A stretch of 64,000 nt of DNA from Bolinopsis microptera (Eukaryota; Ctenophora; Tentaculata; Lobata; Bolinopsidae): positions 11,563,578-11,627,577 of the forward strand of contig NC_087073.1 of assembly GCF_026151205.1 (NCBI RefSeq), read 5' to 3'. Every line of letters begins with the position of its first letter. Position 1 is the stretch's first letter. Shown here in pieces: positions 7,095 to 33,700 of the stretch. Under the pieces are notes generated by a model that was not told the origin of the DNA, did not search any database, and saw only the letters and a list, made by a program, of their open reading frames with translations. A program made the translations under genes and the position numbers.

Positions 7095-9475
7095 TAACCC
7101 TACAATCCAAGATGCTCGTTGAATAATCATTATCTGATAATTATCTGATCATTATCTGATCGTGTTACTGTGTTAGCGGCATGACACCTAGCATGGATCT
7201 GGATTGCATTCTAATAGTCTAATATCATGTATAATATGGCGCTATCAGTGCTGGCCACAGTATTAATAGCGTGCACGTTGTTGCCACTTAGTAGTGGTGC
7301 AGAAAAACACAATATGCCGACAAGCACTGTTTAGACGTCACACTGTCAGAAAACACTGCCAGGAGAGACGCTGTGGGAGCTGTATTTCAAGTTGTGCACT
7401 TTGGTTGTGCACTTTAGCACTCAGTTGCACTTTAGTTGCACTCATGTATTGTCCCTTACTGTTATTCAGGTGTTCGCGAGCCTACTTCATGCCATTTTCA
7501 TCCATTCTCAGTCTTATGAAGTGTTGTTATTTTTGCTCGTGCAGCAATTAATCATTCAACTGCTGACTTATAACGTCAACCGTTTCTGCTGCTTTCAGTA
7601 GTGTGCAGCTTTGCACCTATATATACTATACTATACTACCCTGAATATAGAATACAACGGTATTTGCACCTACCCTGAATATAGAATACACCGGTATTTG
7701 ACAACATTATTAGTAAAAGTTATAAAAGTAGATTGTGGAATTTCCGATCAATCTCACACACACGTTGTTTTTCACGTTGTATCTTGGCATGTGCATTCTG
7801 TTCGTATATAGCTGTTGAATAATGGAAAGATGCTGATCAGCTCAGTTTTGGTCGCTTCTTATCTATTCTGAGCCCAGCTTGGATCTTCAGTGGTTTCACA
7901 TGCTCATTTTCCTCTTTTAGTGTAAGAATTAAGGAATATTCACCCAATAAAGTTACAAAACAAAAATCATTCGGGATAAAATTCTCGAGTGTGTGCACAT
8001 GGGTATGCCGAGCAAATTGCACTGTTTCTTGATATATAATGCATAACATACAATATATAATGCATAATATATGACGCATTATGTCACCGGTTGGGGAAGT
8101 CTATTTAAATCGATCGGTTCAATTTATCAGAACTCTAACTAGGAAAGCTAATGACTGCTCACGGGCTCACCTTGACAAATTCTATTTGACATGTTTCTTC
8201 TAACAAATTGTAAATTGAATCCGGTTATAATTAGAAGTAAATTCAACATAACTCTTCACTCATTAAAGTGGCCGTAAAGACATTAGGGAAGAGATGGTAA
8301 CAATATTTCGTTGCCATGGCAGCAAATGAGCCAGAGTAAAATGGCCACATGTCATTACTCTAGGTGGTATACAATATGTACACTACTACTACTAGCTATC
8401 CTCATTATCGATTTTCTTCAGAAACGTCTGGACTCCGCCTTTTGTTTTTAAAGTTTTTCAGTGCTTTACCATTATGCTGCAATGTTTGGTTGCTAGGTTG
8501 TTGTTACGCAGCCTCTAGTGATTTGGATATTTGTATCCTGATAATGTAACCTCGTAATTTGAGACCGCAGTATATCCGGTTCTGTCTGATTCGATACGAG
8601 TTTAACATTGCTAGATATCATTTTCTCACTTGCTTACTTGTACCACCAACAATTCACAGAATATGCATTCGAAATCATAATTCATCAGTCATCGACAATC
8701 AAGCAAATATCGTGTACTACACGAGCAACAATTTTAGATCTTGTGCTTACTTCATTTGTATTCTCTATACTAAAGCTCTGTGCTACCTGCATTTTTGGTT
8801 TAGACTCTTTCTGCGGTTCAGTTTTATTGGTTTCTTGTCACTTTGAATGAGGTGAACTAAAGGTGGGATTAAAGCATCGGCTCCGGCTTGATTTTTAAAA
8901 TTGTTTAAATATTAAATATTATTATTTTAAATATTTAATATTGTTTCACGTTCTATGCACGAATTGGGTTCCCTTTATCGGTTATCGGTAGGGATTTATC
9001 ACTGATAACCGGTAGTGAAAAGTTGCCTTATAATCAGTGATGATTTTATCGCCGCAAATATTAGTTGCAAACCGGCCTATAAAGCAATGAAAGGCATTAG
9101 TTTGGTCAAATCAAACGGAACATATGCTATCAGACTTTCAACTGACTAAGGCAGGGTTAAAACAGTTTCGACGCTAGCAACGATCCCCTTTTACATAGTT
9201 CCACTAAAATGATAATTTAAGATTAAATATGTATAGTGATAGGTAAATAAAGTCAAAAATATTATAAAACGGTAGGGATAAAGTATACTGAAACTAAGTA
9301 AACGTAGTCGACACGTCATAAAACGAACTGACCCAAATTAAACTGAAAGATCTCCCGCGTAATTTCCCGCGCAATTTTAAAACTCCGTGTACGAGTAGAT
9401 GTCGATGATAGCCGTTCATATAATTAACCCCACGTTTATATAACGACCCCTCAGGCTAAAGTAAAAGCAGAGAAA
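7095..9475. other. intergenic, upstream of the WD-repeat gene
   Basis: No coding block supported. A ~34-bp direct duplication sits at about 7636-7703 (TACCCTGAATATAGAATACA repeated). The 9300-9475 stretch precedes the start codon of the WD-repeat gene and probably holds its promoter and 5' UTR; no TATA box or initiator could be assigned with confidence. Confidence 0.4.
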
Positions 9476-12400
9476 ATGAAGGGGGCTAATCCTCAGAGAA
9501 GGCCTAGTGTCCACGAGCCTATTATACAAAGGTAGGGACAATATTTCAGGATAGGGACCGAAGGAGAAGGCTCGATTCTAACTTCTGCTATTTCTGTTCA
9601 TAAGTTAGTGAGACATAATTGAAAAGCACTGATGTCAGTAATATTAACGGCTCACTACTATGCAGCTTCGACACAAAAGATAACATCCAGCTGGCAGAAC
9701 ATGTGACAATAAAAGACCTGAAGGAGCTGATGAACCACTTCTCTCGGGGGGACAATGGTTCACCCTCCTCGGACATTAGGCTTGATAAGGGCCAGTTTAT
9801 GGGGGCCATTACAGAGCTGCTGGCTAACTCAAAGTGGGAGTATCTGCTGGGAAGTCCTGATTGGGAGAAACAGCTTGACATGCTCTTCAACAAGGTTAGA
9901 GACAAAACAAGGTGTTACATAAAAGGTTAGAGACAAAACACGGTGTTACATAAAAGGTTAGAGACAAAACACGGTGTTACATCGCTGTTGGAGAAAACCT
10001 CCTTATTTGCTCCAGAACCACATTATTGAACAAACCAGAACCTTAAATTATTAAAACCTCTGACGTTTTATTGCAGGTTGATGCTTCCTGCGACGGTATG
10101 GTGGATTGGAATGAGTTCTGTACCTACATGTTACTCCAATATCAGGAAAAAGACGCCGTCCATAATCGTAACGCTCCCTTCAGGTTACTAAATTTTAGTT
10201 GGTTACCAGATATGTTTAGGCTACTCAAAAATATCTTTAGTAACTCAACGAAACCTTAACTAAGATCACTAAAAAGTACTAACCGTAACTGCAGAACAGG
10301 TTGACAACTGTAACAATGTCTTCAGGAGGGAGGAAAAGTACGTTAAAGACAGTGCCAGTAAAGAGACAATAACCCGCGTGTGTTACGCTAGCAACCCCAG
10401 CAGATACCTCAGTGTTACCAGGGTAACTACACATTTGTACTATTAGATAACTCAATGTTACCAGGGTAACTACACATTTGTACTATTAGATACCTCAGTG
10501 TTACCAGGGTAACTACACATTTGTACTATTAGATACCTCAGTGTTACCAGGGTAACTACACATTTAACTCAGTGTTACCAGGGTAACTACACATTTGTAC
10601 TATTAGATAACTCAATGTTACCAGGGTAACTACACATTTGTACTATTAGATACCTCAGTGTTACCAGGGTAACTACACATGTGTACTATTAGATACCTCA
10701 GTGTTACCAGGGTAACTACACATTTGTACTATTATATACCTCAGTGTTACCAGGGTAACTACACATTTGTACTATTAGATAACTCAGTGTTACCAGGGTA
10801 ACTACACATTTGTACTATTAGATACCTCAGTGTCACCAGGGTAACTACACATTTGTACTATTAGATACCTCAGTGTTACCAGGGTAACTACACATTTGTA
10901 CTATCTGTCAATGAACACTGGATAACAGTCTCAAAAGACTTGTAATATTTTATCCGGAATAACCTAGATCCCAGCACAATAAGACTTGTGTTGCAGGATG
11001 GTAACTTATCACTGTGGTCTATGAACATGGAGCTGCAGAAATCAGTACAAGTATGCGACACTCAACCCACCTCCTCAGTGCAAACCTTCAGGCTGGTGCT
11101 ACTCCCAGAAAACAAAGGTGCCATCTTAATTAAAGACCTCTATTATACTTCTATAATTCACTGAATGGAATAACATGTTTATTGTTTAATCTGATATGCT
11201 ATATCTGACACAACTTTGAAATGTACACTAGCGCTCCCATTGTCCAGGTTATGGATAACCGACATGTGTGTGATGGAGAACGTAAACAAGCTAGTGATAA
11301 CAACCACCTCCCGGGAAATGTTCTTCTACGATATGAGCACTAAAACTTACTCCGTCCAGTTCCTTCTCTTTGGTAACAATCACAGATCATAGTTTTTTTA
11401 AATGTCTCCTCAAAAGATGTAACCTGCCAAAATAAACGGTGCCGGTCAGAACATCATAGTTCCTGAAGTTTATTTTCTGGCCATTGCCCATGTTGTCCAT
11501 GCATGTTGCATATATATCTTATCTAATTAGTCAATGATGTTAGTTACTAATGTATTCCCTCATCACCTACAGAGTTAGAGTACGTGCCATTGTGTATGAC
11601 ATATTGGTACAATAAGTCGGACCCAGGAGGCAGGAGCTTCCTTATATTCGGGGATGATAGCGGGTGTCTCCACATCTTCAACTTCCTGCAGCCCATGAAG
11701 GGCCTCTTTGAGTCCCCCACTAAGAAACAAGAGGGATATCTCAAAATCAACATGAAGGTTAGACTCTCTGTAATATTTCATGTCCTGATTTCTTACATTC
11801 TGTTCACAAATAATCCATACGCATCTTACATCTAGTTATTCTAGTTCCGAACATGCTACGAAATCAATAATAAGCTCAATTTTGCTGTATTGTTTGATCG
11901 TTTATTGATTATAAATTTTAAAGATTTCGATTACAAACTTTCTTCCATTTCTGTTTACTTTTGGTTCTTTGCTACTCGGTTTTCTTCTGCTCCAATGTGA
12001 GGCATGTAATCAAATATTTTAGCCCCACTGCCAGAAGATTGCTTCAAACACGAGAAAAATAACGTTCTCATCGTCTGGGGCAAATGATGACAGGAAACTT
12101 GATACACAAACAAGAATATCGAAACAGTTTAGCATGACAAAAAGATGTGTAGTTGAGGTGTCTGAATTCCTTGCTAAGGTGTTTGATTTTCCTTGGCTTC
12201 TGAAAGAGCATAAGGAAAGGAAGTTTCCAGTGACCCCCAAAATTAATCTTACTGAAATGTAGTGTCACCGTGTCCATAATCATAAATTCATACCCAAGCT
12301 GAAAATATGATGGTTAGTTTATCCTTGTTTGATCGAAAGTATTCGTTTGATCGAAAGTCTTCGTTTGATCGAAAGTATTCGTTTGATTTTCACTGCACTA

Positions 12401-15400
12401 CTATTGCATACTATGTGATTAGCTTCTGCACACGAACTTTAGAAGACAATCAGAGACAATAAATGATGTATTTTGTTTTACAGTGAGTGGAGACTCTCAT
12501 TTCATCCCAAGTAATCTATCAATCAACTGATCTTACTAATGAGATCTGTACAGATGATGATAATATTGGCTAGTACTATTAGCATTGGAGTACTGTTAGA
12601 ATCGCCATACAGCTGATCTCTAATTCATAATCTGGTGGATTTTTATTAACATCTTAATAAATGAATATACAAATGAAATAATCAAAATCAGAAACAGATC
12701 TTCGGCGCAGATGGTTCGGCGCAGATGGTTTGGCGCTAGTCAATAGTCAATAATCATAAATCTACATATAGTTTAATATGAAGTATATCATTTCAATATT
12801 TTAATATTTTACTACTATTTACTGAGAACATGCTACAGTTTACTTATAGTCGATTATGCAAATATGTGTCCTAATAATATCAACTAGCTTTATGAACTAA
12901 TTCGATGTCTACCACGCATTAAATAACGACTTGTAGACGGAAACATTTAACATCGCAAATCTACTGATCCTAAAGATGGCATGTGCAAAATACTATATCT
13001 GTAATCTGTTGCCGCACAACTATCTTAAAAGTCGTATTTCCAAACATATGCTGTTTGGTTACAATAATATATCAGTGTTATTGAGAAGCAATCTACTGCT
13101 CCAGTGAACAACATACCACATCAATAAAATATATTTCATTGATGTGGGATATTTTGTGGAATAATATTAAATCTAAAATCAGCAACAGCCTGATGAATGC
13201 ACGTCAAATTTGCAAGACAGTCAGCAGATCTAACGAGCGAATTGTATAGATTGGATAGAAATAACTACTGGGAGTAGTCCAAACTAAAGGGCACCTGGTC
13301 TTCGATATTTCGAAAGCTGGAGGATTTTTCTTTGTGTACTGTGATAGTTTGAAATGAGAGAGGCACAGATTTGTAATTGTATATAATATTCCTGTCACAC
13401 AAGTCCTAACTGATCAAACCCCCGTGCTCCAGGATCTGTCAGATCACAGTCTAAAAGTACACCACGCCCTGTGCATGGGAGGACCTGTGCACTCTGACTG
13501 GGTCAGAAAGGTGGTATACATTCCGGAAACAGACTACATCCTCTCCTGCTCGAGCAGCTCCGAAGAGAGTATGGTACTCCAGGACAGACTCAAAAAGAAG
13601 AAAAACTATATCTACAAAGTCCGCAAGGTTTAGGTTTGATAAGAGTTATTTTCTGATTGTTGACTGATCAGAAAAGTATTCGTACTCTGGAAGCTGGTAA
13701 CATGATATTAAAATAATGACAAAAAAACGATATTTGTTGAGTATAATTGGAAGTGTGTTTCTAAATTAGGCCCTCTTATATTACAGGGGATTAACTGCTT
13801 CGACTTCAACAAGACCCTGAATATAATAGCGACTGGCAGCACTGACCACACTGTACGGCTATGGAACCCTTATGTAGAAAGTAAACCTACTGCTCTGCTG
13901 AAGGGACACCAGACTTCTATCCTGGACGTGGCCATTCACGAGAGTGCTGGACAAGTCTTCAGTTATAGTATGGACGTGGTGAGTGATTAGTGTTTTACAA
14001 GAAGAATATCCTGCGGGTGGTGCTTGAAAACTTTCGGGATGAAAACAGGTTACTTGTCGGCAGATTATCATTGCTCACTCAGTTTAACATGACTATCTTT
14101 TACCATCTTATATCTTAACGACTGTATATAGTTTACATCTTTACTTTTGGATGTTTTAGCGATATCTAATTTAATATTTCCGTCAGGTCCTAAAAGTGTA
14201 CGATATAAAGGAGCACACTTGTCTCCAAACAGTAATCCTCAAATTCCCCCGAGGCAGCAGAGTGCCCGATCATGGCCCCTTCGTGTTACATATTCAGGTA
14301 ACACGTCTCTTAATTTGACAACTTCGTGCACTCTCTTATTCGTCTTTGTTCTCAATTCTTGATACTGGTATGGAAAGGGCACATTTCTCTTCGAAACATT
14401 AACATAATCTAAACATGAGCATGATAAAAAGATAAAACAGAAACATGAACATAATAAACATGAGCAACATTTTTTCATCTGTTCAGAAGAAAGTAACGAG
14501 CGCGCTGATAGTGTGCAGTAATGACTGCATGGCAGAGTTCAGGATGGGGAACAGAACTAACAACAGCCAAGTAAAAGCAGTTCAGAGCCACGCCAAACCA
14601 ATCAGCTGCTGTGCTTACAGTCCTCAAACACATCAGGTGATGGGCGAGAGAGCTTAGAGTAAAAAAAGAGGGTTCTTATAAGTCCATGTTAACAGAGCCA
14701 TCAGTATTTCTCACTAAATCCTCTTTCCCTGACAGATAATGACAGGCTGTGAGGGATCAGTGGTAACTGTGTGGGATATCAATACAGGTGCGAAGATGCT
14801 CAAGTTGAGCAACACTCACGGTAAACAAGAGATAACCTGTATGAGCATTGACACTGGCGGGAAACGACTTTTAACTGGGGCAAGAAATGGAAATGTTAAG
14901 GTGTGTTAAATCTCACTCTCGTTTTATGTTATATTTCATTGAGATATGATGTGATGGTATTTAATTTCCTGCCTGGAAGTAAATTTAAGTAAGAATTCTA
15001 CTGTAGCTAATATTTTGATGTCAGGTGTGGAACTTTAACAACGGTCACTGCTTGAAGAAGTTGGAAGGTTTAGTTGAAGCAGAAGTGACTGGAATCCTTG
15101 CCTTCTCAGAGAAAAGTGTGATATATACAGCCGGATGGAACAAATGTATCAATGTCTACAGAGATGATAAGGATGTATGAGATTTATTTATACCTGGTAT
15201 TTGTCCAACTTTATTGTCTATCTGTGCAACCCTTTTTAAACCCTTTACACCTTTAGTTCCTTCACCATCACCCCACAATCTCTAGGCGTTTTATCTGCGA
15301 CCTCAGCCAGAGTGGCGAGGAGGGAACGTGCACAAAGACGACATTCTAACCACCGCCTACTGCCCTCCTAACCTCCTGGCTACAGCTAGTTTTGATGGGG

Positions 15401-18400
15401 AGATCATCGTGTGGAGCACAGAAACTCAGAAGATATTCAGAAGGTTCCGATCAGGAAGTAAACCCGTGAGACACAGAGGAGGAAACAAACGTCCCTCTAG
15501 CAGAGCTTACCAGGAGCGACCTGCTAATACTAACGGGTCAGACATAAGTTAGATTAGAGAATGTATCTAGCAACTCTTTTATCCATGTGATAATAATTCA
15601 TATTAAACGATCTTGCGTAAAGTCGCGCAACCACGTCGTGACGTCACATCATATAACAGAGCGTCACCAGTGACGTCACATCATATAACAAAGCGTCACC
15701 AGTGACGTCACATCATATAACAAAGCGTCACCAGTGACGTCACATCATTTAGAGAGCGTCACCAGTGACGTAATATCATATTACAGAGCGTCACCAGTGG
15801 ATAAAGTGGTATTCCTGGAGGAGAGAGTTAAGGAGAGACGTAACGAGGATTGCATGCTTGTGAGCAGCGAGAGCGGGTACGCTTTCTTCTGGAACATATA
15901 CGGGGTAGCTCAGTGTGGGGGTAAGTTGATCGTTCCTCTGGAAAATGAACTTGATGATTTTAATGTTTTATAATACTGCTAGTTTATTCAACTTCTTTAT
16001 CACAGTATTTAGTTTATAATAACGGTGTTTGCTCGTGCAGGTTCGTTCCAGACAGCGTGTCGTGATGGAGAAAGTGTGTTGGCAATGTGTACGGACTCTC
16101 AGAACAAACGGCTAGTTTGTGGGGACACAGCTGGTTACATCGCCGTCTACGACATCAGGAACTACTGCACCGTCAACAACAAGGTCTGTGTTTGCTTCAC
16201 CACGCATCTTAACTTTTTGATTTCGAGGAACGTTTTGCGATGTTATTCTAATTTTAACGTGATGCTTTTTCACATGAGTAACGTATCCTGATTCCCCAGA
16301 AAAACACGACTCCTAAAAGGTTGACGGCGTGGCACGGTCACTGTGCAGCAGTGACAGCACTCGACCACATAGAACACGAACATGGCCTGTTCCTGGTGAG
16401 CTGCAGTACAGACAGCACCGTCAGAATGTGGACTGTGCACGGACACTTCATCGGCACTTTCGGGCAGGATATTCCCTGGAGTTTAGGTTATTTTCTACTT
16501 TCTTCTTTAGTCTTAGAGTGAGATATTGAGTCCAAACATATTGTGCAATTAGGGGCTAAGCTTTTGCGGACTTAAGGTATTGTCAATATTACGACTTCAG
16601 TATTGAATAATCAAACTGGAACGAATTTGACGAGCGACTTTGATTACATATTTGTACTAATCACTGAAAACTGGAGCGTTGGGAGAATAATTTAGGAATA
16701 AATTAGAAAAATGGGCATCATTTTCATAATTTTCGGACAAAAAATAAATAATTACATATATATATACATAAATATATACATATGTAAAATCCGGATTGGA
16801 GTATTGTTTATGAGTCGCATGGTTGCAATGTATAGTTCTTGTGTAAATTTGTATTAATCCCGTTTGATGCGACAAGGAAAAATGCTCTTATCAGGAAAGG
16901 AATTACTCAATTCCTTTCCTGATAAGAGCATTTTTCCTTGTCGCATCAAACGGGATTATAATACAAATTTACACAAGAATACATATATACATTTCACATA
17001 TGTACATTATTTATAATTATACAGGTGCATTACAATAAGAACAGTATTAACCGGTAACCACCCTTGCAGCGGACAGAAACACGTTCAAGTATCCTCAGTC
17101 TCCGTTTGAAGCTGAGGGAATCACGCCGCCAACCTACATTCCCAGTATAGATGGAGCGGCTAGCAGGTAATTTTATATCATAATAATCTCTACTATAATT
17201 CAAAGAATTGTTTTTGTTTGTCTGTCGGTACGACCGCCCGCGTGCAAATCAGATGAGAAATAGGAAGTTGCATAGTAACCAATAACCATGGTAACGGTGT
17301 TCAAAAGCGTACGTGCACGTGCAAGGATTTGAGAGGGGCATTTTGATCGGTCTTGTAGTTGTGGTAATTATGTTGTGTTCAGTGCGAGCTACATTGTAAG
17401 ATTGTAATCGGCTGTATCTTCGGTTACGCGGTGACGGATATTTTTTGATGTGATAAAAACTGACTTCCAAAGAATACTATTACTATTAGCTTCCTCCCGT
17501 GACCACGGGCTTTCTATCTTACTTATAATTCAGAGAATTATTTCTGTACACTGTACACTGTACACTGTACGACCGCCCACGTGCAAATAAGGTAAAAAGC
17601 AAAAGGTTGCGTAGTTACCATGGTAACGAGGATTGTTACACGCATGTGCACGTGCAATGATTATTTTAACGTCATTTTGATCGGTTTTGTTGATATTACG
17701 CTGTGTTTAGTACGAGCAACATTTTAATTGGCTGTATCTTCAGTGGGGATGAATACTTTTTGACACGATTAAAACTGACTGCCAAAGAATACTATTAGCT
17801 ACCTCCCTGTGACCACGGGTTTTCTAGTCTATATTATAATTCAAAGAATTATCTTTGTACATTGTACAATGTACATTGTACGACCGCCCACGTGCGAATT
17901 AGGTAAAAAGCAAAAGGTTGCAAAGTAACCATGGTAACGAGTGTTGTTACACGCCCGTGCACGTGCAAAGATTGTTAGCTAGAACAGCATTTTTATCGGT
18001 TTTGTTGATATTATGTTGTATTTAGTCATAGTGCGAGCAACATTTTAATCGGCTGTATCTTCGGTTGCGTAGGATATTTTTTGACGCGATTTAACTACTT
18101 ACTAACAAAAAGTACTATTAGTATTAGCTACCTCTCTGTGACCACGGGTTTTCTAGTCTCTTACTTATAATTCAGAGAATTATCTTTGTACATTGTATGA
18201 CCGCCCACGTGCAAATTAGATGAGAAATAGGAATTTGCATAGTAACCATGGTAACGAGGGTTGTTACACGCACGTGCAAAGATTTTTAGTACGGCATTTT
18301 TATCGGTTTTGTGGTCATTACGTTGTGCTTAGTGCGAGCTACATTTTAATCGGCTGTATTTTCGGTTGTGACGGATATTTGTTGATGCTATAAAAACTTG

Positions 18401-21400
18401 CTAACAAAAAATACTATTAGCTTCCTCCCTGTGACCACGGGTTTTCTATCCATATTATAATTCAAAGAATTATTTCTGTATAATAATGTACGACCGCCCA
18501 CGTGCAAATCAAACAAAAAATATGAATTTGCGTAGTAACCATGGTAACGAGGGTTATTACACGCACGTGCAAAGATTGCCAAGCGACATTTTGATCGATT
18601 TTGTGGTAATTACGTTGTGTTCAGTGCGAGCTACATTTTAATCGGCTGTATCTTCGGTTGTGACGGATATTTTTTGATGCGATAAAAACTGACTACCAAA
18701 GAATACTATTAGCTTCCTCCCTGTGACAACGGGCTTTCTAGTAATATGTATATATAATTATATTGTATAGAAAATATATATAATATAGCCAATAGTGTAA
18801 AATACATATTGTTTAATAATTAACAGTTAATATCTTATATTTTACATTAAATTATATTATATATAGTGCTCGGCTAGTTGACATGGCAACGGACGTAAGG
18901 AACACGAAATATTCAGACCTGCCTACCACGATCTCCAAAATCCACTTTTTTCTGCAAAAAATTACCATTCGTAACCTTTCACTTAACATTTTTTCAAAAT
19001 TGTGAAATGAAAAAAAACCGGAAACGATCGTTCTTTTGAGAAACAGTAATGGTTTCACTTCTTCAGAAGGTCGTCATTCCATTTATGGTCATGAAAGTAA
19101 AAAAGTCATTAAAAAAGACAAAAAAGCAAAGTAGGACTAGGAAGAACAAAGGACCTGGTAAAACAATTTTTTGGGAACAACAAGGGACCGTTTTCATTTT
19201 CAGAAGTCTCCTCTGCAGCGGGCAGCCACTTTACTGTTACACATGGGCTATTGCGTAGAAATTATTTTAGCGTAAGCTTTTTTCTCCCACTAGGCTGGCG
19301 TACATAATATGTAATATGTGAACGATTCCTGCTAGATCTCAATGAAGTATTCTTGTATCCAAATTTGACGCTCTAATGCATCATAGTCGACTATTCAAAT
19401 TCCAATACAGTGTCGATAATAACGCTTCAAGTATTTTCCAACACATAGAACTTGAACATGGTCTCTCCCTCAATCACGGCCTGCATCGTCAAATTGCGGA
19501 CGCTGTGGAATGTGGATGCGGATTGTAGATGGGGCAACTATACCGTAGATTACAGGATATATAGCTGCTAATGCCCCGTGCATTATATATATATAATGCA
19601 CGGGGCATTAGCAGCTACTAACGAACAATAAATTTAAGATAATAGCGTATACCTTATCAAATATGAATATGGATAAGGTCAAATAAGGTCAAATCGTTAA
19701 TAATCCTTCTTCACTTCAAGTTCAAGTTTTTTTAAATTTTTTTACTGTAGTTTGATAATTTTAGTCAAAATATCATGACTTTAAATGGCCGTTGAGCTTT
19801 CATAAAGAAACTTGATAGTTTGATCTACGTTTTATACCTCTTTTCGCGCGCGAAAATATTTTCATCCAGTGCAGCTTTTTTGGATGAGGAAGAACAGCGA
19901 GCGTGCTGCCGTGCTAAAAGTAAATCACTTTACAGTTACACCCCCCCCCCTGACAGTTGAAAGCACTTTAAATCGATGTATTTTTGAAAATGAATGCTGA
20001 TTCCAAATCACCCCACATGACATAGGGTAAATCTGCACTGAGATAATACTACAGACTTTTACAGTTATTGCATCACTTACAAGTACAACTGGTATTAGTA
20101 TTACATCTGATTTAATTACTATTCAAAAATACATCGATTTAAAGTGCTTTCAACTGTCAGGGGGGGGGTGTAGAGTGATTTACTTTTAGCAAGGGAGCAT
20201 TATAATATAATGCTCCCTTGGCGAGATATCGTCGTCGAAAAACCGTCTCAATCACGTTATATGTCCATAACTGTAAGGAAGTTGGACTAATTTCTCGTTA
20301 GGGTTAGGGATTTAGCGTATGCTTCAGCTTTAGGGATCGGGTGAGGGTTAGGGTTGGGGTCAGTGTAGAGAGGGTTAGGGTTTTGAATAGTCATGATCAT
20401 TCAGGGCCACCGAGAGAACGTGTTAAAAAGTCACGTGTCAGTCCAGTGCAGAGTGATTAATCATCATCCGAAGAAAATACTGATTCAAGCCATTAGCAAA
20501 CAATTAATCTTTTTTGGTCCTTTGTGTTTGATTTGAATCAGATAATCTCTAGAGTCTAGATTTTGATAAATCTGAAAGCTTTGTTCTCTTTTTCAAAATT
20601 TGATGGTTGCCGGTTGGTAAGAGTCTCAAATAAGGGGCCATCTACTTAGGATCCAGGCTGTTAAATTCGCCAAATTTTTGTAAAAAAGTACGGCGTATTT
20701 AGAGTTCTCAAAAAGTACGCGAATAATTCGCCAATTTAAAACTTCAATTTTTAGTTTTTAGGGCTGTTAAATTCGCCAAAAAATGCGCGGAAAATTCGGT
20801 AAAAATACGGCTGTGGGAACACGCAGCATTCTCGAGTCTATAATTTTATAATCTAGAATTGGATATGTGAATTTTGACGTTATACTTCAAATCTCAAACT
20901 TACAAATCTCGACAAGTAGACTAGACAGAGACTGTGGAGGAAATTAAGTGATCTCAAGTTTATTAAAATAAGTTAGTTTACTCCATAACGTCTTCGGGTA
21001 TGAGCTAAATTAAACCCCTTGCGATCTTGGTCAGTACCCACGCTAGTCACTAACCAGTAACCACGCACGTGTTGCAGGAAGCACATGTTTTGGCAATATT
21101 CCACCATACAAAGCCAACTATCGTGAACATTTTGATGCGGGCACGTGATTCCTGTTCCCGTATTTGGTATATTTTTTTAAATGCGGTAATTTTCAGAGAA
21201 CAATTCGTAGCGTATGCAAATTTAATTCGAATAGTTATAATACGTTTAGTGCGAATTTAACAGCATTGCAGTTAGGATGTCCGGCAAATAGGGAGGGGGT
21301 GGTTTTGGAATTTCGCACAAATCCGGACAAGGAGAGGGGGGGGGGTGGTTTCTGAAAATCCGGACGTCCGGAAATTTTGGCAGAATTAACGAAAAAGTCC

Positions 21401-30700: not shown

Positions 30701-33700
30701 GAATATAGTACGTAGTAAGAACAAGTAGTGCAGACGAAATGTTACTTACGTAGGTAATAGGTAAGCACATGAGATTGTGTGTCACATATTCCTCATCAGA
30801 TCACTTCAATATTATAATCAGAGACATTAATCTCTACTTGAACCAACTTATCACGTAAACGATAATATTGCAAAGTGTATCTGGGTAGACATAATAACTT
30901 AACGTCTCCCTCCCACGTCTAACATTTCATGCGGCTTGCTGGACGTTGCTCTTATTGCTCTAGTTCAACTATAACTTACACTCGATACAACTTGTTGTTT
31001 ACACTTTCATTTGCACTAGAGTTTGTACTAGGCAGGTTGTCACTCGTGTATATATTAAGAGTACATGTCATCACCTCAAGTACTAATTACTAATTATACG
31101 TGTACACATTATTATCATTTCAAGACTAACGAGATTTGATAATTTGCAACAAGAGCTGATCTTCAACAAATGAGTGGGGAATTACAATAATATTTATCTA
31201 GATTAGTTTTACCCCATTTATGAGATCCTGCACCTGAACGTTATATAATGAGAATAATCTCATGTATAATCCTATGTATTTATATTATAAAATTCTATTC
31301 ATTGTTGTAAATACTCACCTTGTCGACCCTGTCTTTCTGTACTCCGAACTTTCCTCCAAATCCTTTAGAAGAGTCAGTAACAGAGGAGTGCTTACTTATC
31401 TCTGATTGGTGGTCGTAACCTACTGAACTCTGAAAACACCAGGCATAAGAGACCATCAAATTAGCCAGGGAACTTCTCATCGCCGTGATTTAAATAAATG
31501 CGCAAATCTTCTTGCTTTTGAGGTTGAATCATTACCTAATTAAAAAACAAAGCACGAAATTAGGCAGTCCGCTTCGGTTAAGATAATTATGGTAAACTCA
31601 AATAGTATCCTCATCTATGTTGGGATTTAATTGCAGGAACGTTTAAATGAGTCCATAAAATGCAAATCTGAGATATTATATAATGAGTTATTCATGTTAA
31701 ATTAGATAGTCTATCTACCAACCAAGCACAGTGACACAAGCATAGTGGTTACATTTAGTTCATTATTAAACATTGCTTTATTTGTTATAGTATGGGCACA
31801 ATTTGAACAATATTGACCACTTGTCTTGCGGATACAAAGAAGCCAAGTACCTATCATTCTATCAAGTACCATAAATTTGTCGTGGTTTATAATGATCACG
31901 TGACGTGACGTCAGGTTCCAATTCTCAGAACAAGTCGCCATATTAAAAGAATATACCTAGCACTAGATCCTACTAGTGCTACTTGTGCTCCGTAGCGAGC
32001 AGTGGTACCTCAGTACTAGATCCTAGTAGTGCTACTTGTGCTCCGTAGCGAGCAGTGGTACCTCAGTACTAGATCCTAGTAGTGCTACTTGTGCTCGTAG
32101 CGAGCAGTGGTACCTCAGTACTAGATCCTAGTAGTGCTACTTGTGCTCGTAGCGAGCAGTGGTACCTCAGTACTAGATCCTAGTAGTGCTACTTGTGCTC
32201 CGTAGCGAGCAGTGGTACCTCAGTACTAGATCCTAGTAGTGCTACTTGTGCTTCGTAGCGAGCAGTGGTACCTCAGTACTAGATCCTAGTAGTGCTACTT
32301 GTGCTCCGTAGCGAGCAGTGGTACCTCAATACTAGATCCTAGTAGTGCTACTTGTGCTCCGTAGCGAGCAGTGGTACCTCAGTACACTAGATTAATCTCA
32401 TGTATTGAAATACATACAGTGTAGTTGTGTACTGTCAGCACTGATATGTTCTACCAATATGGGCCAAGTTTCTGTGAATTGTCATGCTCATTTGTTTTTA
32501 GTAAGCAAGTTTTCAAGATGTTTCCATTTGAAAATGATATTTACAGAGGTAAGGTAAACAAATGTTCTGAGACAAATTTTACTGAAAAAAGGCCTGAAGT
32601 TGCGGGGGAGTTTTCTACAAACAATATTTTAGATATTTCTCATTTGACTGATGTTTTTTGTTTCATCATATTGATTCTATAATATTGTTGGTTTAAACCA
32701 TCAAGCGCAGAACACTTCCGGCTCACGTATATTATATAGGCCCCGATTAACAAAGAAACAAGTCTATTTCTTTATTCCTCCTACTCCTCTCTAAAAGACT
32801 AGTTTATTGTTGTGAAGACTCACCTTGTCTTGCCTGTCTTTCTGTACTCCGAACTTTCCCCCGAATCCTTTAGCAGCGTCACTTTGTGAGCCGTGTTTAC
32901 TTAGCTCGGCCTGGTGCTCGTAACCAACTGAACTCTGAAACGAAGAGATAAGCACTCTATTGGGCAATAAAAATAAGAAAACGGCGCTTTTTCTCTTTTT
33001 AACTGAATACTTTGACCAAGAATTTAACCGTTTATTTTTATATTTTATTTTTAACACTATCTTTCATTATAATTGGGGAAAAAACAATAATTTGATAACC
33101 ATAAATCAGGGAAGAGTTGTAGGGCATGCTGGCAGTTATTTGAACTGCTCATTTATTAGACTGGTAGTGAGAGCTGTAAGGTATCGGGAACTTTGTATTT
33201 TCGCGAACTAGTGGAGAGTTTACTGAGCACCAGGACAGGCTCTTACAGCCAGTTTCCCAGCGCGGTAGTGTCAGAGTTATCATCACCAATATTGAAACGG
33301 CTTTCAGGAATCAGTTTAGACACAAATCTAGTCGGTCAGGTTTCAGAGCACAGCTTCGAAACTCTAACTTTGGTGGTAAAATACCCTTGTTTTGTAAAGG
33401 TCTATTCTTTATCTCACCTTTAGAAACCTTTCAAGGTTGACTTACAATTAATTTCTTTCGTTTATGTTGGTTTTATTTAAAAATGAGAACCCCTCCCGAT
33501 TTCGAGCAGATTTAACCTTTGTCTTTGAACATTCAGTTTTCCCGCAAATCGCCGTTTGCTAAATTATAGTTCAATTATAACGAGATTTCGACATTGACCC
33601 ACCAATCACCATGTCTCATTTAAATCACTAAATCGCAGTTTAACACTTAACTCTCCTTGTAAATAAAGCGTTTGTTATCAGTTATTTATATATTATCCGC

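What the first reader, a model, noticed from the sequence alone, without database searches (positions are those of the whole stretch)
10403..10904. Minisatellite that has amplified an exon end plus its splice donor twelve times
The 43-bp unit consists of the last 20 coding bases of exon 4 of the WD gene, the GT donor and 21 bases of intron. All twelve copies keep GG|GTAACTAC. The spliceosome thus faces twelve nearly identical donors. If a downstream donor is used, the exon lengthens by multiples of 43 nt (mostly frame-shifting), so donor choice could act as a length-polymorphic switch.
Basis: partly seen in the sequence, partly recalled or inferred. Interest (0 to 1): 0.75.

Follow-up and report, generated by a model that had tools for sequence, protein, structure and literature searches.

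The report
Minisatellite across a splice donor
A 43-base piece of DNA spanning the end of an exon is present in twelve tandem copies in a cilia-type gene, probably of a comb jelly; the extra splice signals cannot make new protein versions, and the core of the repeat recurs at the heart of other short tandem repeats in this genome.

Summary
Twelve copies of GG|GTAACTAC lie at 10421-10891, spaced 43 bp with one 31-bp step, and copy 1 is the end of a coding exon. The gene is of the EF-hand/WD40 WDR49/WDR64 axonemal family, in a 264.65-Mb genome (probably a lobate ctenophore; inferred).

The switch interpretation is mostly wrong. An in-frame TAG lies 22-24 nt after donor 1, upstream of donor 2. 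All 11 downstream donors therefore give the same truncated protein (VTTHLYY*), whatever the frame or copy number. Only a productive/non-productive ratio could vary.

Unexpectedly, the unit's core, GTTACCAGGGTAAC, recurs. GTTACCNNGGTAAC has 1221 sites genome-wide (10 for the reversed word, 26 for a permuted palindrome), many of them as the core of tandem arrays with periods of 15 to 55 bp. It fits the RFX X-box consensus, but tests of RFX as the cause were inconclusive or negative.

Best reading: a recent minisatellite that happened to span a real donor. Copy 1 is used; the other donors are at most decoys leading to decay. It is a new member of a known kind (human IFI6). The recurrent GTTACC core is the more interesting lead.

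The parts
10402..10904 (+). Minisatellite, 12 copies of a 43-bp unit (one step of 31 bp)
   Evidence: TRF; copy table
10326..10422 (+). Coding exon whose last 21 bases are copy 1 of the unit (...NPSRYLSVTR)
   Evidence: Open frame, AG/GT borders and continuation into the next exon
10423..10996 (+). Intron holding the array, donor AGG|GTAACT, acceptor TTGCAG|GATGG
   Evidence: Only donor 1 joined to 10997 stays open (RDGNLSLWS); inferred, no RNA data
10444..10446 (+). In-frame TAG met by every transcript that uses donors 2-12
10414..10427 (+). GTTACCAGGGTAAC, palindromic core of copy 1 overlapping the donor; fits the X-box consensus GTNRCC N0-3 RGYAAC; also at 10457, 10500, 10543, 10574, 10617, 10660, 10703, 10746, 10789, 10875, and as GTCACC... 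at 10832
   Evidence: consensus from PMC10530576 passages
10997..11117 (+). Next coding exon, starts DGNLSLWS
9667..17166 (+). Stretch holding the modelled exons of the EF-hand/WD40 (WDR49/WDR64-family) gene; both ends of the gene uncertain
   Evidence: Pfam; PDB WDR64 chain 9fqr_No E=1.2e-48; exon borders
9892..9982 (+). 31-bp x 2.9 repeat starting at the donor of the first modelled intron (AACAAG|GTTAGAG)
   Evidence: sequence
15638..15799 (+). 32-bp x 5 repeat ending at an acceptor (CACCAG|TGGATAAAG); five CACCAG|TG copies
8310..8323 (+). Single X-box-like site, one mismatch (GTTGCCATGGCAGC), about 1.35 kb upstream of the first modelled exon
17359..18742 (+). 292-bp x 4.5 satellite downstream of the last modelled exon (intron or flank), with GTWACCATGGTAAC at 4 places

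Best explanation
This is a young minisatellite that arose by tandem duplication of a 43-bp segment straddling a genuine exon-intron border, and it then spread within the intron. Shown: the array, the reading frame, the stop codon, and the recurrence of the core elsewhere in the genome. Inferred: the exon borders themselves (from GT/AG, frame and homology); that donor 1 is the productive donor; that donors 2-12 are tolerated because the spliceosome mostly ignores them, or because transcripts that use them carry one common early stop and are degraded. The perfect keeping of GG|GTAACTAC reflects recent origin and a core word (GTTACC NN GGTAAC) that is prone to tandem amplification in this genome, not selection for twelve donors.
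For: 12/12 identical donors, with few differences in the core and the 16 flanking positions (1 and 7; copies). Only donor 1 gives an open join. Of 6 arrays simulated in the gene's introns, 3 touch a splice site; random placement allowing 25 nt into exons gives 3 or more in 9.2% of trials, so contact with splice sites is not clearly more than chance. GTTACCNNGGTAAC: 1221 sites against 10 reversed and 26 for a permuted palindrome; sites inside arrays are not independent. 369 pairs within 30 bp against 0 reversed; of the 50 pairs listed, 9 are this array and 5 look like one dispersed repeat. Fetched arrays with periods 15, 19, 20, 21, 22, 29, 32, 33 and 55 bp share the core; by eye most have different flanks, but L007/L009 share a unit and so do L030/L031.
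Against: No RNA evidence that donor 1 is used. Why GTTACC dyads amplify is unexplained. Nothing here dates the array. The arrays were picked for carrying the core and their units were found by similarity to it, so the lower variability of the core than of the flanks is partly built in.
Confidence: 0.62

Rival explanations
1. Copy-number dial: more copies recruit more U1 snRNP to non-productive donors, so array length sets the share of transcripts that hit the common TAG and decay.
For: 12 equal donors. The donor matches a U1 consensus (CAG|GTAAGT, recalled) at 6 of 9 positions; the 15 donors listed for this gene score 3-7, two of those entries being set one base off. In human IFI6, downstream repeat units are used as donors (PMC4526556 introduction passage).
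Against: No expression or polymorphism data. The protein outcome does not depend on copy number.
Confidence: 0.14
2. Intronic RFX element: the array is a battery of twelve X-box dyads that helps drive a ciliary gene; the overlap with the donor is incidental.
For: 12/12 cores fit GTNRCC N2 RGYAAC (consensus in PMC10530576 passages). RFX DNA-binding domain matches in the genome (3). The gene belongs to an axonemal family (PMC11779644 passages). Of 5 single X-box-like sites outside arrays in the window (up to 1 mismatch), 4 lie at 7.0-18.9 kb around this gene (post hoc binomial P 0.006). Canonical GTTGCCNNGGCAAC has 164 sites against 0 reversed. In GTTACCNNGGVAAC (679 + 546 matches), about 62 of the 100 listed have the X-box base C, by hand count.
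Against: The canonical dyad is hardly arrayed: 4 close pairs, all in one array, against 369 for GTTACC. In 13 arrays, changes allowed by the X-box code are not significantly commoner than disallowed ones once transitions and transversions are split (P 0.53 and 0.17). Of 11 other array loci (20 open frames), 2 gave a Pfam match over cut-off, acetate kinase and WD40, neither specifically ciliary; one had a sub-cut-off match to a ciliary inner protein family, CMI2B-like, E 0.0035 (the 8 control loci were not scanned).
Confidence: 0.13
3. Intron birth by tandem duplication: the intron itself was created when an exonic segment with AG/GT was duplicated, and the array is the fossil.
For: A paralogue (L051) reads through this position in one open frame, GRFVTVDISGTMGLWNTDMQLQKSV. 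The acceptor region GTGTTGCAG|GATGGTAACTTATCAC resembles the unit (score 22). Fission yeast has an intron across four 24-bp duplicates (PMC4974935 passage).
Against: Score 22 is reached by 92 and 102 of 2000 shuffles, by one of the gene's 15 other acceptor windows and by 83 of 4226 windows of the locus. The acceptor lies 92 nt beyond the array. The paralogue seems also to differ at the preceding two intron positions (my reading).
Confidence: 0.08

Closest known systems
IFI6 (6-16, G1P3) minisatellite, human (Turri et al. 1995; original paper not held; known through a citing passage and reference titles)
   Same: A minisatellite that supplies multiple splice donor sites in series
   Different: For IFI6 the citing passage reports downstream repeat units used as donors, giving three mRNA species and different isoforms; here use is unknown and every downstream donor leads to the same early stop
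[quoted passage not shown] vertebrate ATP2A1; fission yeast 24-bp repeats; potato RdRp), PMC4974935 passages
   Same: Tandem copies of a segment that carries a splice site, next to an intron
   Different: Here the repeat supplies only the donor side; the acceptor is outside the array and not a demonstrable copy
RFX X-box (GTNRCC N0-3 RGYAAC), PMC10530576 passages
   Same: Each unit holds a full match
   Different: Arrayed GTTACC form, not the canonical GTTGCC form; no binding shown
Human VNTRs that affect splicing (ABCA7, MIR137), starts of abstracts
   Same: Minisatellite with a splicing effect
   Different: From what the listing shows I cannot say whether their unit carries an exon end with its donor

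Membership tests
Minisatellite | Head-to-tail array of 10-100 bp units with high identity | tested here: met
   43 bp x 12.0, 91% matches
Minisatellite providing multiple splice donors (IFI6 kind) | Unit carries a donor, first copy continuous with an exon | tested here: met
   border inferred without RNA
Minisatellite providing multiple splice donors (IFI6 kind) | More than one repeat donor used in mRNA | not testable with these tools
   No transcript data
Minisatellite providing multiple splice donors (IFI6 kind) | Downstream donors give different full isoforms (seen in IFI6; not strictly defining) | tested here: not met
   All 11 downstream donors meet TAG at 10444-10446
Intron gained by tandem duplication | Both splice sites come from copies of the duplicated exonic segment | tested here: inconclusive
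   Acceptor similarity score 22, P about 0.05 by shuffles, equalled by another acceptor
Intron gained by tandem duplication | Intron absent in relatives | tested here: inconclusive
   Absent in one diverged paralogue, whose neighbouring introns seem to differ too
RFX X-box array | Sequence match to GTNRCC N0-3 RGYAAC | tested here: met
   12 of 12 copies
RFX X-box array | Variation between units respects the X-box code | tested here: inconclusive
   13 arrays, 291 units
RFX X-box array | The canonical RFX dyad is arrayed as well | tested here: not met
   4 pairs, one locus against 369 for GTTACC
RFX X-box array | Occupied by RFX, acts as enhancer | not testable with these tools
   No ChIP or reporter data
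WDR49/WDR64 axonemal family | EF-hand region followed by WD repeats, best match WDR64 | tested here: met
   WD40; WDR64 (best of 455 PDB sequences); EF-hand part matches calmodulin, E 8.5e-5. WDR49 itself was not compared

The most novel reading that the evidence does not exclude
In this genome a palindromic 14-bp word, GTTACC NN GGTAAC (an RFX-type dyad), is itself a seed of minisatellite birth. Wherever it arises, including by chance at a codon/splice-donor junction as here, the surrounding 15-55 bp tends to be tandemly amplified. Some arrays may then be co-opted as banks of transcription-factor sites or decoy donors.
Probability: 0.3. Interest if true: 0.7.

Novelty: new member of a known kind. 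Interest (0 to 1): 0.42.

Why it matters
As a splicing curiosity it is a natural test of donor choice: twelve equal donors with a built-in stop, so any use of donors 2-12 can be read as loss of full-length protein. The wider point is the recurrent core. Minisatellites with different periods share one palindromic word about 47 to 122 times commoner than the two control words used here (sites within arrays are not independent). That would let one ask directly what seeds minisatellites (hairpin, bound protein or recombination) in what is probably a deep-branching animal.

Tried and rejected
Donor-dependent frame switch: rejected by the common TAG. An earlier version of that script used wrong exon borders and its translations are not used.

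RNA structure as a cause: the array does not fold significantly better than shuffles (141 nt, z -0.51, 53 of 200 shuffles at least as good; 502 nt, z -1.03, 14 of 100).

Splice-site targeting of minisatellites: three arrays in this gene touch splice sites, but random placement in short introns does this in 9.2% of trials. The simulation used 6 arrays that I chose, with approximate borders for the intron at 15548-15797, and left out the 292-bp satellite and a 7-bp repeat at 17544.

RFX as cause of the arrays: see rivals. I first read the abundant GTTACCNNGGTTAC sites (2928 + 3797 matches for the pattern GTTACCNNGGTBAC; of the 100 listed all but one are GGTTAC) as violating the X-box, but their reverse complement GTAACCNNGGTAAC fits GTNRCC, so that test does not discriminate. 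GTTACCNNGHTAAC gave 163 + 205, many of the 100 listed seeming to lie in one cluster (C2:497646-508345) or in dispersed repeats.

Ctenophore loop-anchor motif (PMC12221973, passages): the paper describes a GC-rich motif with two CpGs bound by CTEP1 and CTEP2; the core here contains no CpG, so not pursued.

Literature: no paper in the library holds X-box, RFX and minisatellite together; RFX, X-box, tandem repeats and intron together gave two unrelated papers in the listing; ctenophore, tandem repeats, genome and Bolinopsis together gave none. These are searches of one open-access library only; I make no wider claim that the core is not in print.

Full report
Identity and setting. The window is C2:11563578-11627577 of a 264.65-Mb assembly in 232 contigs. 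The twelve contigs whose lengths I saw, C1-C12, are 15-26 Mb; the length of C13 was not seen. Thirteen chromosome-scale scaffolds are reported for Bolinopsis microptera, with an estimated 1n size of about 254 Mb (PMC10232365, passages), and 13 chromosomes and 247.97 Mb for Mnemiopsis leidyi (PMC11797021, start of abstract). From size and contig number I infer a lobate ctenophore; no sequence comparison to a named ctenophore was made.

The gene. Modelled exons from 9667 to about 17166 on the + strand encode WD repeats, and the best solved relative is WDR64 of the sperm axoneme (9fqr_No, E 1.2e-48). The N-terminal part resembles EF-hands. PMC11779644 (passages) places WDR64 on the CCDC96/113 coiled coil and proposes it as a sperm-specific paralogue of WDR49. 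The borders are GT/AG inferences supported by reading frame; several borders other than the one discussed are uncertain (in one search a few entries are a base or more off).

The array. TRF gives 10402-10904, period 43, 12.0 copies. GG|GTAACTAC is kept in 12 of 12 copies, with spacing 43 except one 31. Copy 1 is exon sequence...NPSRYLSVTR joined to DGNLSLWS at 10997 restores a WD-repeat-like reading, and of the 12 donors only the first gives a join that stays open through the next exon. From donor 1 onward the frame reads VTTHLYY then TAG at 10444-10446. Hence donors 2-12, whose extensions are 43 to 461 nt (3 of 11 divisible by 3), all give the same truncated product.

The core. The donor lies inside GTTACCAGGGTAAC. 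This 14-mer occurs 70 + 54 times in the genome, against 0 for the reversed word (100 places were listed, 11 of them this array). GTTACCNNGGTAAC has 1221 sites against 10 reversed; a permuted palindrome GTCATCNNGATGAC has 26 against 14 reversed. 369 pairs lie within 30 bp, with 0 for the reversed control. I fetched 10 loci picked as clusters and 10 picked as isolated sites (one of the latter, L016, proved to be a 9-bp array), then 8 more clusters. The clusters include tandem arrays with periods of 15, 19, 20, 21, 22, 29, 32, 33 and 55 bp; by eye most have different flanks, while L007/L009 and L030/L031 share theirs. Four of the 10 loci picked as isolated share one dispersed-repeat layout. In the background of the window plus eight 9.9-kb control loci (143.2 kb), 79 arrays of period 9 or more were found, and only the two in the window hold an X-box match. 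On C1, 35 of the 50 listed sites lie in the first 1.1 Mb, as minisatellites near chromosome ends would.

Is it an RFX element? For: the consensus fits in all copies, RFX domains exist in the genome, the gene family is axonemal, 4 of 5 single X-box-like sites in the window lie around this gene (post hoc), and dispersed X-box words are enriched in the genome. Against: canonical GTTGCC dyads are hardly arrayed; unit-to-unit changes do not clearly follow the RFX code; other array loci show no clear ciliary bias in the 20 open frames scanned from 11 loci, apart from one sub-cut-off match, and no control scan was made. I leave it at 0.13.

Is it an intron being born? The paralogue at C8:1537392 has no intron at this place, and the acceptor region looks somewhat like the unit, but that resemblance is borderline by shuffling and is equalled by another acceptor, and the neighbouring introns seem to differ between the paralogues too. 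I leave it at 0.08.

Conclusion. The likeliest account is a recent minisatellite that spans a real donor, with copy 1 in use. The unexpected and more general result is the shared palindromic core of minisatellites with different periods, whose cause is open.

Noticed in passing
15638-15799: Second junction repeat in the same gene: a 32-bp x 5 array with TGACGTCA ends at an acceptor (2 nt into the exon); of the 4 upstream CACCAG|TG acceptors, one (15734) would keep the frame and add 21 residues.
   Followed up: partly
9892-9982: 31-bp x 2.9 repeat begins at the donor AACAAG|GTTAGAG of the first modelled intron (3 nt inside the exon by TRF).
   Followed up: partly
31954-32385: 53-bp x 8.2 minisatellite with its own palindrome (ACTAGATCCTAGT) and the shared word TACCTCAGT; host gene not determined.
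   Followed up: no
L030 (C2:1584700-1586100) and L031 (C2:1686300-1687900): The same 32-bp array in inverted orientation at two places; it begins right after a coding-looking stretch ...EDGTVLYYLKWR with a donor-like GTACGT. Not searched against families (one search failed).
   Followed up: no
L012, L014, L017, L020: Dispersed repeat with two X-box-like dyads 18 bp apart and a third about 330-400 bp away, same layout in 4 of the 10 loci picked as isolated.
   Followed up: no
G000:C1:1079909-1082908: Dense 9-bp repeats GTTACCAAG/GTTACCCAG near the chromosome end, a direct-repeat form of the same word.
   Followed up: no
L027 (C1:3425500-3426900): A four-copy GTTACCTTGGTAAC array sits between two copies of the same flanking sequence (GCATTAAGATTGAAGTGGCTCCTGAACAAGGTTGGTGGT), as if part of a larger duplication.
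   Followed up: no
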